Shown piece after piece: positions 486 to 15,510 of a DNA stretch of 64,000 nt (position 1 is the stretch's first letter; every line of letters starts with the position of its first letter). The DNA lies in NCBI RefSeq assembly GCF_038039215.1, contig NZ_JBBPCL010000001.1, positions 310,001-374,000 on the forward strand, written 5' to 3'. The position numbers and the translations under genes were made by a program. The notes under the pieces are model-generated. The model worked only from the letters and a program-made list of their open reading frames with translations. It was not told the DNA's origin and did no database searches. Origin of the DNA: Pseudonocardia sp. T1-2H (GTDB lineage Bacteria > Actinomycetota > Actinomycetes > Mycobacteriales > Pseudonocardiaceae).

Positions 486-619
486 CCTGCACCTGCGGAG
501 CGGGTCCGGCGAACGCGCCGCCGGTCCGCCGCGGGTCGCGGCGTGCCCGGCGGCCCCGGACCTGGCAGGCTGGAAGGGGTCGAGCCGACGCGTCGCGTCG
601 GAGGATGGGCGGTTGCACG

Positions 620-3600
620 GTGAGCGAACGGGAGGTGTCGGGTTCTCCCGTGCCCGGCGGCACCGTCCGCGACCTGATGTCCGACGCCCGGTTCCCGCTC
701 GGCCCCGCCCGGGACTGGCCCGCCGAGCTGCGGTCCGCCGTCGAGATCATGCTCGGCGCCCGGCACCCGCTCGTGATCTGCTGGGGCCCCAGCTCAGGTT
801 CCTCTACAACGACGCGTTCGTGCCCGGCGCGGGCCGCAAGCACCCGGACGCACTCGGCCGGCCGTGCACCGAGGTCTGGCCGGAGATCTGGGAGCGCATC
901 GGCCCCGCGTTGAAGCAGGTCCTGGAGACCGGTGAGCCGGTCTTCCGCGAGGACGACCGGCTCGTCTTGAACCGCAACGGCCGCCTCGAGGAGACGTACT
1001 GGCGGTACTCCTACAGCCCGATCCGCAGCGCCGACGGCACCCGGGTGCTCGGCGTCTTCAACGTGACCGCCGAGACCACCGCCCAGGTGCTCGGCACCCG
1101 CCGGATGCGGCTGCTGGGGCGCCTCGGCGAGGTCTCCCGGGACGTCCGGACCACGCCCGAGGCACTCGCCGGGATCGCGGCCGTCCTCGCGGAGGCGAGT
1201 GAGGACGTCGCGTTCGCGCTCTTCACGATCGGCGAGGGCGACGGGCAGCGGCTCGTGGCCTCGGCCGGCCTCGACGACCCGGAGCCGGTAGCCGCGTCCG
1301 TGCGCCCGCCGGCCACCCCGCCTCCCGGTGGCCCGGTGGTCGAGGAGCTGCCCGAGCCCGTCGTCGGCCGCGATCCGGACCCCGTCGGACGGGTGGTGCG
1401 CACCGTGCTGCCGGGGACCCAGGGCTCCCCGTCGGTCGGCGTGGTGCTCGGTCTGCCGCCGCTGCTGCCGGCGGACGACGACCATCTTTTCTTCCTGCGG
1501 CTCGTCCTCGGCCACGTCGGCACCGCGGTCGCGGCCGCGCGCACCCATTCCGACGAGCGCCGTCGGCTCGAGGCGATGGTCGCGCGGGACCGGTCGAAGA
1601 CCGAGTTCTTCACCGGCGTCAGCCACGAGTTCCGCACGCCGTTGTCGCTGATCCTGGGCCCGCTGGACCAGCTGCGGCACTCGGCGGACGCGGAGGTCCG
1701 CCGGGGCGCGGAGATGGCGCACCGCAACGCCGAGCGCATGGTCAAGCTCGTGAACAGTCTGCTCGACGTGTCCCGGCTCGAGGCCGGGCACAGCGACGCC
1801 GGGTTCGCGCCCGTCGATCTCGGGACCCTGACCGGGGAGCTGGCCGGGCTGTTCCGGGAGGCGGTCGAACGGGCCGGGCTGCGGCTCGACGTCGACTGCC
1901 CGCCGTCGGAGCGTCCGGTCTGGGTGGACCAGGACATGTGGGAGAAGATCGTCCTCAACCTGCTCAGCAACGCGGTGAAGTTCACCTTCACCGGCGGGGT
2001 CTCGGTGAGCACGCGGATCGAGGGCGAGGAGGCCGTGCTGCGGCTGGCCGACACCGGCACCGGCGTCCCGGCCGCCGAGCTCCCGCACCTGTTCGAGCGG
2101 TTCCACCGGGTACGCGGCGCCCGGGCCCGCTCGCACGAGGGCAGCGGGATCGGGCTGGCGCTGGTCCGTCAGCTCGTCGAGGTGCACAGCGGGACCGTCG
2201 AGGTGACCAGCACCCCGGAGGTCGGCACCACGTTCACCGTGCGGCTGCCGCTCGGGTTCGCGCACCTGCCGGTCGAGAGCATCGGGTCGCGCACACCGGT
2301 CACGCCGCGGCCCAGCCCCGCGACGGCCGAGCCGTTCCTCGCCGAGGCGCTGCGTTCGATGCCCGGCGGGAGCAGCGACGAGGCCGGCCCGGACCTCGCC
2401 GCGACCGTCGACGCCGTCGGGGCCGGCGGCCGCAGCCGCGTCCTCGTCGCGGACGACGACGCGGACATGCGGAACTACCTGCAGCAGCTGCTCTCCGAGA
2501 ACTGGGTGGTGCAGGCCGTCGCGGACGGCCGGCAGGCGCTCGAGGCGGCGCGTGCGGACCCGCCGGACCTGGTCGTCGCGGACGTGATGATGCCCGGCCT
2601 CGACGGGATCGGGCTGCTCCGCGCGCTGCGCACCGACGCCCGCACCGCGGGCCTGCCCGTCGTGCTGCTGTCCGCCCGCGCCGGCGAGGAGGCCGCCGTC
2701 GAGGGCCTCGACGCGGGCGCGGACGACTACCTCGTCAAGCCGTTCTCGGCCCGCGAGCTGCTCGCCCGGGTCGCCAACCACCTGCAGCTCGGCCGCGTCC
2801 GACGGGCCGCGGAGCTGCGGTTCCGCGCGATGGCGGACTCCACCCCGGCCCTGATCTGGGTGGACGACGCCGGCGGACACCGGATCTTCGTCAACCGCGG
2901 CTGGCTGGACTTCACCGGGGTCAGGGACCCGGCCGGCGAGCTGGGCCTGGAATGGCGCGAACGCATCCATCCCGAGGACCGCGAGCGTTACCGGACGGTC
3001 GTCGAGGCGGCGTCCCGGGCCGGCGCACCGTTCGAGGTCGAGTACCGCCTGCGCGATGCGGACGGCCGTTACCGCTGGGTCCTGGACCGCGGGACGCCCG
3101 TGGGCGGGGACCGCTCCGCGGGCTACATCGGCGGCTGCCTGGACATCGACGCCCAGCACGTCGAACGCCGCCGGTACCCCGTCTTCGCGCGGCTCGGGGA
3201 CGTGCTGGACCGCGAGCTGACCAGGGTGGACCGGCTGCACGCGCTGGCGCGGACGCTCGTCGACGAGGGTCTGACGGATGCGGCCCGCGTGTACGAGGGC
3301 GGGACCGAGTCGCCGGTCGTCCTGCGCGCCGTCGCCGCTCCCGACCCGGCCATCGAGGCGGATCTGTGGCCGCTGAGCGGCTCGCCCGCGCTGACCGAGC
3401 ACGGCGACGCCAGAGAGACGTTCCGGCTCGGGCCCGACGAGATGCGCGCGGCGCTCGAGGGCGTCCCGCCGGAGGACGCCGCGGTCTGGCGGCGGCTCGG
3501 GGCGCACTCCGCTCTCATCGTCCCGCTCCGGGCCCGGGGCGCCTGGCTCGGCGTGATCGGCGCGGTGCGCCTCGGGGATACGCCTGCCTTTGACGACGCG

Positions 3601-6135
3601 GACGTCGACATCATCACCGAGATCGCCCGCCGGGCCGGGGTCGCGGTGGACAACGCGCGTCTGCTCGAGCTGGAGCGGTCCAGCGCGCAGCGGCTCGGGC
3701 TGCTGCACCGCGCGACCGCGGAGATGTCCGCGGCGGCGACCCCGACCCAGGTCGCCCGGATCGCGACGAACCACGTGGTCGCGCTGCTGGGCGCGCCGAT
3801 CGCGGGCACGTTCGAGCTGCGTGGCGAGCTGATGGAGCCGCTGGCCACCCATGGTTGGCAGAGCGACGTGGCCACGACCGTCCCGCTCACCGAGCCGCTG
3901 CCCAGCCGGGACGCGGTCCGGCACCGCACCGCGATCTGGCTCCGGGACGCCGGCGAGTGCCGCGAGCGGTATCCGGCCGCCGCGAAGTACCTGGAGGACG
4001 GCGGCCCGGAGGCGGCCTGCTGGCTGCCGCTGGTCGTCGGGGACCGGGTGCTCGGCCTGATCGGGGTCGCGTTCCACGACCGGCGGGAGTTCCCCGAGAC
4101 GGACCGCGAGGCGGCGCTGGCCGTCGCGGAACTGGCCGCGCAGGCCCTGGACCGCGCATTCCTGCTCACCGCGGAGACGGACGGGCGCCGGCTGGCCGAG
4201 CGCCTCGGCGCCGTCGCGACCGCGCTGTCGCGGGCCACGGACCTGGACGCCGTCGCCGCGGTGATCGTCGCGCACGGCATGTCCGCGGTCGAGGCGGAGG
4301 CCCTGGTCGTCGTGGCCGCGGACGACGAGGGCGTGCTGCACCCGCTCGCCGCGGACGGCTGGGACGCCCCCGGGTCGCCGCTCGCCCCGGATGCCACGCA
4401 CCCGCTCGCGGGCGTGGTGCGGACGGGCCAGCCGATCTGGCTGGCGCAGAACCCGCCCGAGCCCTTCCCCGCGCACACGGCCGTCCCGCTGCTGGTCGGG
4501 GGCCGGGCGATCGGGGCCGTCGGGTTGCGGTTCGCCGAGCCGCCCAGCTTCACCCCGGAACGTCGCGGCTTCGTCCTGACGCTGGCCAGCCAGTGCGCGC
4601 AGGCCGTGCTGCGGGCGCGGCTGCACCAGGCCGAGCACGAGGTCGCGGTGACGCTGCAGCGGAGCCTGCTCCCTCAGCGGTTGCCGGACCTGGACCGGCT
4701 CGCGATCGCCACCCGCTACAAGCCCGGCACCGAGGGCACGGAGGCCGGCGGGGACTGGTTCGACGTGCTGGACCTGGACCACGACCGGGTCGCGCTGGTC
4801 GTCGGGGACGTGGTGGGGCGCGGGCCGTCCGCCGCCGCCGTCATGGGGCAGCTGCGCAGCGCGCTCGCCGCGAACCTGGTCAACGGCCAGTCCCCGGCGT
4901 CGGCTCTCGAGCAGCTCGACCTGTTCGCCCGGCGCGTCGAGGGTGCCCGGGCCAGCACGGTGGCCTGCGCGGTCGTGGACTGCGCGACCGGTGAGCTGGT
5001 CTACGCCTGCGCCGGGCATCCGCCGCCGCTGGCCGCGGGTCGCGACGGCGGGGTCCGGCTCCTCGACCGGGGCCGCGGCACGCCCCTCGGGGTCTCCGGC
5101 CGGCCGCCCTTCGTCGAGTCGGCGGCCCGGATCGAGATCGGCGAGACGATCCTGCTCTGTTCCGACGGGCTCTTCGAACGCCGCACCGAGGTGATCGACG
5201 ACGGCCTGGCCCGGCTCGTCGAGACGTTCGGCCCGCTGGCGCACGTGCAGCCGCGGGACATGGTGGACACCCTGCTGGACCGGATGCTCGCCGGGTCGGG
5301 GGCGCCGGACGACACCGCCGTCGTCGTCGCCCGGTTGCTGCCGCTGCCGTTGCGCGAACGCCTGCCCGCGGACGCCGAGCGGCTCGCCCCGCTGCGCCGC
5401 CGGGTCACCGCCTGGAGCAGGGACTGCGGGCTGGACGCCGACGCCGTCACGGACCTGCAGCTCGCGCTCGGCGAGGCGGTGACCAACGCCGTCGAGCACG
5501 CGTACCTGGGCGGCCGGGCCGAACCCGCGGACGAGGCGGTCGACGTCGTTCTGCAGGTGCTGGAGGACGGCTCGGTGGAGGTGCGGGTCGCGGACCGCGG
5601 GGTGTGGCGGCCGCCGCCGGAGGACCCGGGCTACCGCGGCCGCGGGCTCGCGCTGATCCGCGAGCTCGCCCACGACGTCCGCGTCGAGCCGGGGGAGAGC
5701 GGGACCGTCGTGCGGTTCCGGGTGCCGCCGGTGCCGGTCGAGCACCCGCCGGCCCTGCCCGGGACGGCGCTCGGGGCGGACGGCGCGGAGGCGCCGGCCG
5801 AGGGGCCCGCGCGGTTGCGCCGGTGGGCGGACGAGCACACGGTGCGCCTGCACGTCGACGGCGACCTGGACCTCGCGGGCGTCGCGTCCGTGCGGTCGGA
5901 CCTGCTCGCCGAGCTGGACGGGGGCCGGACGCTCACCCTCACCCTCGGCTCCGACTCGTACGTGAGCAGCGCCGGGATCGCGCTGCTGTCGGAGGTGGCG
6001 CAGCGGGCCCGCGCGGCAGGGGGCGAGCTGACGGTCGTGACGCCGTCGGACAGCCCGTCGCGGCGGATCCTGGTGCTCGCCGGGCTGGACACCGTGATCG
6101 GGCTCTCGGCGGGTCCCCGGGGCGAGGACGGTTAG
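620..6135 (+). CDS. Giant hybrid histidine kinase / SpoIIE phosphatase / RsbW-like kinase / STAS fusion (one frameshift in this sequence)
   Basis: A single chain of about 1838 residues once a one-base shift near 783-790 is repaired. Visible domains in order: N-terminal PAS (about 30-150); HisKA with SHEFRTP (about 334); HATPase with NLLSNAVKF and GSGIGLAL (about 446-515); receiver domain with DDD near its start, VVADVMMPG (phospho-Asp about 655) and LVKPF; second PAS (about 733-843); three GAF-like segments (about 850-1333); SpoIIE/PP2C phosphatase (GGDWFDV about 1376, DDTAVVV about 1563); RsbW-like HATPase with GEAVTNAVEHAY and GRGLALI; and a C-terminal STAS domain with SSAG at the expected phospho-Ser. 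It should be cytosolic: no membrane segment is evident. By family knowledge it would couple a phosphorelay to sigma-factor partner switching. The start chosen is GTG 620, with GGAGG at 600-604; ATG 605 is an alternative. The frame opens from 409, but before about 791 it does not encode PAS-like sequence. Confidence 0.85.
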
Positions 6136-6922: not shown

Positions 6923-7596
6923 GCCGCACGATCGCCGAGGTGCTGGCGGACGCCCGGGCCCGCCTGGACCGGGTCGGCCCCGAGCGCGCGGCGGAGCTGC
7001 GCGAGCAGGGCGCCGTCCTCGTCGACACCCGGCCGCAGTGGCAGCGGGACGACGAGGGCGCGATCCCGGGGGCCCTGATCATCGAGCGCAACCACGTCGA
7101 ATGGCGGCTCGACCCGTCGTCGGACGCGAAGATCCCGGAGGCGACGGACCACGACGTCACCTGGATCCTGTTCTGCTCCGAGGGCTACAGCTCCAGCCTG
7201 GCGGCGGCGAGCCTGCAGGACCTGGGCCTGCGCAACGCCACGGACCTCGACGGCGGCTTCAAGGCCTGGGCCGCCGCCGGCCTCCCCACCACCCCCGAAC
7301 CCCCGCGAGTCGCGATCTGGCGCCCCGCGAGTCGGGGTCTGGGGCCCCGCGAGTCGGGGTCTGGCGCCCCGCGAGTCGGGGTCCGGCGGCGGCCGGATCG
7401 ACTCCGGTCAGGGCTCGTAGAGCCGGTCGTGCGCGGCCCGCGCCGTCCCGCTCTGCACCCGGTCCTGCGCGACCGCCCACCGCCGGGTCTCCCGTCCACA
7501 CGGAGCCGGTGGTCGGCATTCCCCAGCTCTGCAGCACGCGAACCGCGAGGCGATCATGTGGCCAGGCCGGCGTGTGTGGCGCGGCTTCCCGCTTGA
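6919..7596 (+). CDS. Rhodanese-domain sulfurtransferase with atypical C-terminal tail
   Basis: A one-domain rhodanese occupies residues 1-130: VDTRPQWQRDDEGAIPGALIIER is the N-terminal signature, FCSEGYSSSLAAA carries the active-site Cys and its loop, and DLDGGFKAWAAAGLP is the C-terminal signature. It would transfer sulfane sulfur and is coupled to the upstream dioxygenase through an ATGA overlap. Homologous single-domain enzymes end near the GLP motif. Here the frame runs on for about 95 residues through a tandem 22-bp repeat (PRESGSG/PRVGV) and antisense to the end of the neighbouring synthetase gene. The tail is therefore probably a read-through caused by repeat insertion or an indel, not a functional domain. 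Confidence 0.8.
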   Translation: MSRTIAEVLADARARLDRVGPERAAELREQGAVLVDTRPQWQRDDEGAIPGALIIERNHVEWRLDPSSDAKIPEATDHDVTWILFCSEGYSSSLAAASLQDLGLRNATDLDGGFKAWAAAGLPTTPEPPRVAIWRPASRGLGPRESGSGAPRVGVRRRPDRLRSGLVEPVVRGPRRPALHPVLRDRPPPGLPSTRSRWSAFPSSAAREPRGDHVARPACVARLPA

Positions 7597-10501: not shown

Positions 10502-10588
10502 CCGCGAGTCGGGGTCCCCAGGCTGCCGAGTCGGGCTCGGCGGTGTACGGGAACCCCGACTCGGTAGCCGCCAGACCCCGACTCGCGG
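10502..10588. repeat. Inverted pair of the CGCGAGTCGGGGTC element
   Basis: CCGCGAGTCGGGGTC at 10502-10516 and its exact reverse complement at 10574-10588 form a 15-bp inverted repeat around a 57-base spacer. The spacer itself contains two degenerate arms (GAGTCGGGCTCGG and CCCCGACTCGG). The unit is the same as in the 7302-7389 array. It lies between the start of the acyl-CoA dehydrogenase and the end of hrpA and could fold as a terminator for neither-strand-specific transcripts, or be a dispersed genomic repeat. Confidence 0.85.
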
Positions 10589-15047: not shown

Positions 15048-15510
15048 GAGTGGAGATGTCCGCACCGAACGCCGGTCGCCTCTCGGCGCGTGGCCGCTCG
15101 CAGCGGCGATGGGTGAGACCCGGGGACACGGATCGCCCGGCGCGGACGCTCCTCACAACCATACCCACGGGGGGTTTATTCCTAGGGGAGGTCGGTGTCC
15201 GAGGAGGGCGCCGGTCGCCTCTCGGCGCGTGGCCGCTCGCAGCGGCGAAGGGGTGAGACCCGGGGACACGGATCGCCCGCCTCGGACAGTTCCTACAACC
15301 CTGCCCGTCCGGGGTTTGTTCCCCGGAGAGCGAGGTAGGTGTCCGAGCCGAGTGCTGGTCGCCTCGCGGCGAACGGCACACCCAGGCTCCAGCCGAACTG
15401 GTATTCCATGGCGGCGCTTATCTATTGCGGCCCGGGGACACAGGTCACCCGACCCGGACTTCATGCTCCAACGGCCGGGGCGCCGAGATGATTCCCGGAT
15501 CCCGGGGGTG
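15048..15510. repeat. Two near-identical ~139-bp units plus a degenerate third
   Basis: The block GGTCGCCTCTCGGCGCGTGG begins at 15073 and again at 15212 (period 139 bases). Each copy is followed by CGCTCGCAGCGGCGA, then GTGAGACCCGGGGACACGGA, then a C-rich arm and GGGGTTTATTCC or GGGGTTTGTTCC. A third copy begins near 15356 (GGTCGCCTCGCGGCG) and is diverged in the middle but retains the CCCGGGGACAC block at about 15431. Each unit is preceded by a GTCCGA-like block. The 579-base stretch 15024-15602 holds these repeats and no gene I can support. Confidence 0.85.

What the first reader, a model, noticed from the sequence alone, without database searches (positions are those of the whole stretch)
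620..6135. Phosphorelay and sigma partner-switch fused in one chain
One protein carries a hybrid histidine kinase (HisKA, HATPase, receiver), PAS and GAF sensors, a SpoIIE/PP2C phosphatase, an RsbW-like HATPase and a STAS domain. Each piece is known separately (RsbU, RsbW and RsbV act as partners in general stress control), but having phosphatase, kinase and anti-anti-sigma together behind a histidine kinase makes a self-contained switch. The receiver between the kinase and the phosphatase could make the phosphatase respond to phosphorylation.
Basis: partly seen in the sequence, partly recalled or inferred. Interest (0 to 1): 0.75.

Follow-up and report, generated by a model that had tools for sequence, protein, structure and literature searches.

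The report
Stress switch fused to histidine kinase
One very long bacterial signalling protein joins a histidine-kinase relay to a phosphatase, a serine kinase and its likely target in a single chain; both halves are known from other proteins, but in related bacteria the relay half has repeatedly lost its key residue or been cut out while the switch half stayed intact.

Summary
One gene (about 605/620-6135, +) carries HisKA, HATPase_c, receiver, PAS, GAFs, SpoIIE phosphatase, HATPase_c_2 and STAS, all above Pfam cut-offs. A frameshift near 784-793 affects only the first ~60 residues; a 96%-identical relative is intact. The C-terminal domains are not a separate gene. The closest named relatives are Pseudonocardia.

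The tail is the known Rv1364c arrangement (phosphatase-kinase-STAS; PDB 3ke6, E 3.7e-47). The front, kinase to receiver to phosphatase, resembles RsfS/RsfR or RsbK/RsbY joined in one chain. So this is a new variant of a known kind, not a new system.

What is new here: at the same syntenic locus in other genomes of the genus, the phospho-accepting histidine is Asp or Glu, or the kinase is missing. A 64-row tree needs at least four changes of this histidine. Phosphatase, kinase and STAS-serine residues are intact in all 29 such proteins that could be assessed. With the histidine, receiver Asp and Lys are both intact in 129 of 130 proteins; without it, in 8 of 31 (not significant after allowing for ancestry). 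The phosphorelay is therefore probably a dispensable input. Sigma factor, signal and every enzymatic step remain untested.

The parts
605..793 (+). N-terminal start of the gene (start ATG 605 or GTG 620), in a different frame from the rest; beginning of an N-terminal PAS_4-type sensor, judged from relatives
   Evidence: P0003 residues 1-63 align here; translation; PF08448 is listed for many relatives but gives no hit in the window protein itself
784..793 (+). frameshift zone (assembly error or true mutation, cannot tell)
   Evidence: overlap of the two aligned pieces of P0003
1594..1788 (+). HisKA, phospho-acceptor His codon at 1624
   Evidence: Pfam PF00512; residue map
1927..2253 (+). HATPase_c of the histidine kinase; N-box Asn and G1-box Asp present
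   Evidence: PF02518
2440..2772 (+). receiver domain; acceptor Asp codon 2581, Lys codon 2737
   Evidence: PF00072
2884..3102 (+). PAS_3 domain
   Evidence: PF08447
3736..4152 (+). GAF_2 domain (one of three GAF stretches)
   Evidence: PF13185; three GAF-like units, judged by eye, in the secondary structure of the model of relative P0056
4198..4608 (+). GAF domain
   Evidence: PF01590
4555..4668 (+). predicted ~38-residue helix linking the last GAF to the phosphatase
   Evidence: helix 527-564 in the model of P0056, transferred by the aligned phosphatase Asp
4780..5337 (+). SpoIIE/PP2C phosphatase, metal-binding Asp residues intact (first one just upstream of the Pfam match, codon 4753)
   Evidence: PF07228; PDB 3ke6
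5362..5721 (+). RsbW-like serine kinase (HATPase_c_2): GEAVTNAVEHAY and DRGVW motifs
   Evidence: PF13581
5836..6102 (+). STAS anti-anti-sigma domain, candidate phospho-Ser codon 5968 (SYVSSAG)
   Evidence: PF01740 and PF13466; aligned with RsbV SYMDSTG and TM1442 SYMDSAG

Best explanation
It is a single-chain partner-switch regulator of the Rv1364c type (PP2C phosphatase, RsbW-like serine kinase, STAS target) driven by a multi-sensor hybrid histidine kinase. Proposed working (inferred): PAS and GAF sensors set the autophosphorylation of His(1624); phosphate passes to the receiver Asp(2581); receiver state, together with PAS/GAF ligands, is carried through long helical linkers to the dimerising phosphatase. 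The RsbW-like domain phosphorylates the STAS Ser(5968) in the same or a neighbouring chain and the phosphatase removes the phosphate. The STAS and kinase domains then switch partners with anti-sigma and sigma proteins encoded elsewhere. Shown here: domains, intact catalytic residues, conservation, synteny. Inferred: every enzymatic step, the sign of the receiver effect, and the sigma output. The histidine phosphorelay is probably an optional input: in at least four lineages its His is replaced by Asp or Glu or the kinase is missing while the switch tail stays intact.
For: Domain scan. Catalytic residues conserved among the window protein and 162 homologues: PP2C Asp 159-162 of 163, RsbW Glu 158 and Asn 157, STAS Ser 150 of 163. 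The tail's best solved relative is Rv1364c 3ke6, by sequence and, on the model of a relative, by fold. Published Rv1364c: kinase phosphorylates and phosphatase dephosphorylates Ser600 of its own STAS (PMC9138534, PMC10950880, passages). Published HK -> REC-PP2C -> anti-anti-sigma control: RsfS/RsfR and RsbK/RsbY (passages). The same genome carries the halves as separate genes: PAS-SpoIIE-HATPase_c_2-STAS and PAS-HK-REC-SpoIIE. The HK-intact, H->D, H->E and HK-less forms share one locus: an alpha/beta hydrolase upstream in 20 of 20 fetched loci. Tree built without HK or REC columns: minimum of 4 changes of His state over 64 rows.
Against: Nothing shows enzymatic activity or a sigma target. No SigB/F/G match lies near the gene. 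The STAS Ser is absent or changed in 13 of the 163 rows, some of them fragments, and no STAS was found in relatives of Mycolicibacterium, Saccharothrix and Paractinoplanes. Two homologues (P0147, P0148) keep the STAS Ser but lack RsbW-kinase residues. In the D1 clade the HATPase_c motifs and the receiver Asp persist although His is gone, so the head may still do something else. The His/receiver link is not significant once shared ancestry is allowed for. Some branches that separate the His-less clades are only moderately supported (82-92% SH-aLRT).
Confidence: 0.6

Rival explanations
1. The receiver is an inhibitory or phosphate-sink domain of the histidine kinase, as published for RsbK of B. 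cereus, and does not control the phosphatase; PAS and GAF ligands drive the phosphatase alone.
For: RsbK receiver deletion or Asp substitution gives high constitutive sigma-B (PMC4574943 passages). Here about 670 residues of PAS and GAF separate receiver and phosphatase. The four HK-less proteins keep the receiver fold (88% mean identity among them) even with Asp replaced by Asn in 3 of 4.
Against: If it only inhibited the kinase it should be free to vanish with it, yet all four HK-less proteins keep it; I saw no other phosphotransfer target in the chain.
Confidence: 0.25
2. The output is not a sigma factor but another STAS- or RsbW-controlled process (for example a cyclase or a second partner-switch complex).
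For: No SigB/F/G match near the gene; 18 STAS_2 matches over cut-off in the genome, this gene's own included; the SiaABCD pathway is a published non-sigma output, named in a passage of PMC9239204.
Against: 4 SigB/F/G-type sigma factors over cut-off in the genome, two of them within about 2 kb of HATPase_c_2 and STAS matches.
Confidence: 0.3
3. The gene is a decaying pseudogene in this genome, because of the frameshift.
For: Frame break at 784-793.
Against: The remaining 1784 residues are open with the surveyed catalytic residues in place; the 96%-identical relative is intact; another SpoIIE gene of this assembly is also split between frames, which points to sequencing error.
Confidence: 0.1

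Closest known systems
Rv1364c of M. tuberculosis (PAS-RsbU-RsbW-RsbV in one chain)
   Same: Order phosphatase - RsbW-like kinase - STAS; 334 residues of the tail align to 3ke6 at E 3.7e-47, with a shared DRGxW ATP-box motif; PAS sensing in front
   Different: Rv1364c is 653 aa with one PAS and no histidine kinase or receiver; here HK, receiver, PAS and GAFs precede the tail. The 3ke6 alignment ends in the kinase domain, so the two STAS domains were not compared here
RsfS/RsfR of M. smegmatis and RsbK/RsbY of B. cereus
   Same: A histidine kinase acts through a receiver on a PP2C phosphatase of an anti-anti-sigma factor (PMC10950880, PMC4574943 passages)
   Different: There separate proteins, with opposite signs of the phosphorylation effect; here one chain, PAS and GAFs between receiver and phosphatase, and kinase plus STAS attached
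REC-PP2C-STYK protein of Campylobacterota (PMC9239204 passage)
   Same: Receiver, PP2C and RsbW-like kinase in one protein
   Different: Its histidine kinase is separate and unknown, and its STAS target is a separate protein
HK-REC-PAS-SpoIIE-HATPase_c_2 proteins of Mycolicibacterium, Saccharothrix, Paractinoplanes (L024, L027, L025)
   Same: Same order up to HATPase_c_2
   Different: No STAS found in the scanned frames, and GAF found only before the HK

Membership tests
Rv1364c-type single-chain partner switch | PP2C (SpoIIE) domain with metal-binding Asp residues | tested here: met
Rv1364c-type single-chain partner switch | RsbW-like HATPase directly after the phosphatase, with Glu/Asn/Asp motif residues | tested here: met
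Rv1364c-type single-chain partner switch | C-terminal STAS with the conserved Ser | tested here: met
   Ser in 150 of 163 rows
Rv1364c-type single-chain partner switch | own kinase phosphorylates and own phosphatase dephosphorylates the STAS Ser | not testable with these tools
   needs purified protein
Hybrid histidine kinase | HisKA with phospho-acceptor His, HATPase_c N and G boxes, receiver with Asp and Lys | tested here: met
   for the window protein; the His is lacking in 31 homologues
Phosphorylation-controlled REC-PP2C phosphatase (RsfR/RsbY) | receiver directly N-terminal to PP2C | tested here: not met
   PAS and GAFs intervene
Phosphorylation-controlled REC-PP2C phosphatase (RsfR/RsbY) | receiver phosphorylation changes phosphatase activity | not testable with these tools
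   only indirect co-conservation
Sigma partner switching | binding of a SigB/F-type sigma or its anti-sigma | not testable with these tools
   candidate sigma factors exist in the genome but none near the gene

The most novel reading that the evidence does not exclude
The hybrid-kinase head is an exchangeable input that evolution has repeatedly locked: by an acidic residue at the phospho-acceptor site (possibly imitating the phosphorylated or signalling state) or by excision with an Asp-to-Asn receiver, turning a phosphorelay-driven partner switch into one driven by conformation or ligand alone. The Pseudonocardia orthologues would then be a natural mutant series showing that receiver and HisKA domains can carry signal to a phosphatase without phosphotransfer.
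Probability: 0.3. Interest if true: 0.65.

Novelty: new variant of a known kind. Interest (0 to 1): 0.47.

Why it matters
It joins the two main bacterial phosphorylation schemes (His-Asp relay and Ser partner switching) in one polypeptide, and gives orthologues at one locus in which the relay is intact, acid-substituted or missing while the surveyed switch residues are unchanged. That allows a direct test of whether a receiver or pseudo-kinase can control a PP2C phosphatase without phosphotransfer, a question close to the coiled-coil linker model for RsbU (PMC12143880, passages).

Tried and rejected
Separate C-terminal gene: rejected, one frame. Assembly chimera: rejected, the same chain occurs in many relatives at a conserved locus. 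Adjacent sigma partner: the genome-wide SigB/F/G search has no match within about 250 kb; the ORFs of 170 aa or more upstream and 90 aa or more downstream were named by eye only, not by a domain scan. Wide spread across the class: not seen at the cut-off used; 2 of 148 class genomes, own included, match the tail at E<=1e-70, and the other match stops before STAS. Statistical proof of His/receiver co-loss: not reached. HK decay by faster evolution: only mild; in the D1 clade mean identity is HisKA 0.76 and HATPase_c 0.74 against SpoIIE 0.85, and in the H clade 0.79, 0.80 and 0.83. Docking of STAS on the kinase domain: not testable from the model output (pTM 0.55). Literature: nine searches; none showed the full architecture in the listings or in the passages I opened (five papers), and most subscription papers are not held.

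Void results: searches used window references out of frame, so their empty or odd results mean nothing; the questions were repeated in frame.
Full report
What is there. The window lies at C1:310001-374000 of a 7.0-Mb genome; the closest named proteins are from Pseudonocardia. The gene runs from 605 or 620 to 6135 on the + strand. Residues after about the first 60 form one open frame, 781-6132. The start lies in another frame; P0003 (Pseudonocardia sp. MAG, 96% identical) aligns in two pieces, 1-63 to 605-793 and 61-1844 to 784-6132. Another SpoIIE gene of this assembly is also split between frames, so a sequencing error is likely but not shown.

Domains. Pfam gives, above cut-off: HisKA, HATPase_c, Response_reg, PAS_3, GAF families (three stretches), SpoIIE, HATPase_c_2, STAS. 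The catalytic residues that I listed are all present in the window protein: HisKA His, N-box Asn and G1 Asp, receiver acidic pair, Asp and Lys, five PP2C Asp, RsbW Glu/Asn/His/Asp/Gly, STAS Ser. The choice of these residues rests on recalled motifs. The STAS Ser aligns with the Ser of RsbV SYMDSTG and of TM1442 SYMDSAG; the preceding Asp is replaced by Ser here. That this Ser is the phospho-site of RsbV is recalled, not from a call.

Relatives. A search with the full chain gave 2281 proteins at E<=1e-3 among 7986 scored candidates, with 120 listed. In those 120, PP2C, RsbW and STAS residues are all intact in 118, and the whole set including HisKA His, N-box Asn and receiver Asp in 91. Over the listed rows of two searches, 162 homologues: switch residues intact in 147, whole set in 115. 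Genera named for chains with STAS in the listings include Pseudonocardia, Geodermatophilus, Blastococcus, Modestobacter, Trujillonella and Actinomycetospora. In the genus, 30 of 62 genomes hold the tail at 63% identity or more, two with partial matches and two that look near-identical to each other; 56 of 62 have some match at E<=1e-60. In an even draw of the class, 2 of 148 match at E<=1e-70, one being the genome itself. For Saccharothrix, one search lists a match reaching query residue 1848, which the scanned frame does not explain.

The halves exist apart. In the window's genome, L135 encodes PAS-SpoIIE-HATPase_c_2-STAS (the Rv1364c order), L136 PAS-HK-REC-SpoIIE (with a GAF match below cut-off) and L137 GAF-SpoIIE-HATPase_c_2. 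The fusion thus looks like an assembly of modules already in circulation (inference).

Loss of the relay. Of 163 rows (window protein included) 130 keep the HisKA His; 23 have Asp, 4 Glu, 4 lack the kinase (P0039-P0042) and 2 are fragments without that region (P0056, P0129). A tree of 64 rows on PAS-to-HATPase_c_2 columns, so without HK and receiver columns, puts these in four separate clades with a minimum of 4 changes: D1 (17 rows, HATPase_c motifs and receiver Asp kept, receiver Lys to Arg in 14), E (4 rows), HK-less (4 rows, receiver Asp to Asn in 3), D2 (4 rows, N-box also lost). Each clade has 100% SH-aLRT, but branches that hold them apart include values of 82, 89 and 92. The tree is of the quick kind, has some long branches, its outgroup is not one side of a branch, and rows were chosen by hand from the 163 (fragments dropped). 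Counting changes cannot tell gain from loss; I read them as losses because the outlying rows carry His. In 20 fetched loci the neighbours match: alpha/beta hydrolase upstream in 20 of 20, acyl-CoA dehydrogenase downstream in 18 of 20; these names were given by eye. The residue at the His position is His in 7, Asp in 7, Glu in 2, and in 4 the alignment has no kinase region. So D1, E and HK-less forms are orthologues rather than stray paralogues; no D2 locus was fetched.

Meaning. PP2C, RsbW and STAS residues are intact in all 29 His-less proteins that could be assessed; two more (P0038, P0123) are fragments cut before the tail is complete. Receiver Asp and Lys are both intact in 129 of 130 with His and 8 of 31 without. 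This agrees with phosphotransfer from the fused kinase to the receiver, but three independent pairs on supported branches give p 0.25. The receiver stays 88-91% identical within the HK-less, D1 and D2 clades (75% in E), so it probably has a structural part in signalling even without phosphorylation (inference). The model of relative P0056 (mean pLDDT 85, pTM 0.55) shows three GAF-like units, judged by eye, followed by helices of 46, 46 and 38 residues, the last just before the phosphatase, in keeping with the coiled-coil linker model for RsbU-type phosphatases (PMC12143880, passages). Its best PDB match is 3ke6, the RsbU and RsbW domains of Rv1364c.

Known versus new. The tail is the Rv1364c arrangement, reported to phosphorylate and dephosphorylate Ser600 of its own STAS (PMC9138534 and PMC10950880, passages). 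Histidine-kinase control of a receiver-phosphatase acting on an anti-anti-sigma factor is known as RsfS/RsfR, where phosphorylation lowers activity, and RsbK/RsbY, where it raises activity (PMC10950880 passages). The sign here is therefore open. The one-chain combination was not described in what I saw of the listings. It is a new variant of a known kind; the natural series of relay losses is the part worth following.

Noticed in passing
genome C1:284039-286500 (L133 1039-3500): A separate partner-switch cluster (STAS, GAF-like/SpoIIE, HATPase_c_2) about 25 kb upstream of the window; its SpoIIE is split between two frames, which suggests indel errors in this assembly.
   Followed up: partly
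genome C1:953031-959739: A SigB/F/G-type sigma gene lies beside HATPase_c_2, STAS and SpoIIE matches: it looks like a canonical sigma partner-switch cluster and is a candidate target.
   Followed up: no
window 7301-7386: Short tandem array with a 22-base unit (CCCCGCGAGTCGGGGTCTGG-like); a related piece lies at 10502-10538.
   Followed up: no
window 15049-15371: Imperfect direct repeats at about 140-base spacing near the start of the hrpA-like gene (gene named by eye).
   Followed up: no
P0147, P0148: Homologues that keep the STAS Ser but lack RsbW-kinase Asn and Asp: the kinase part of the tail can also decay.
   Followed up: no
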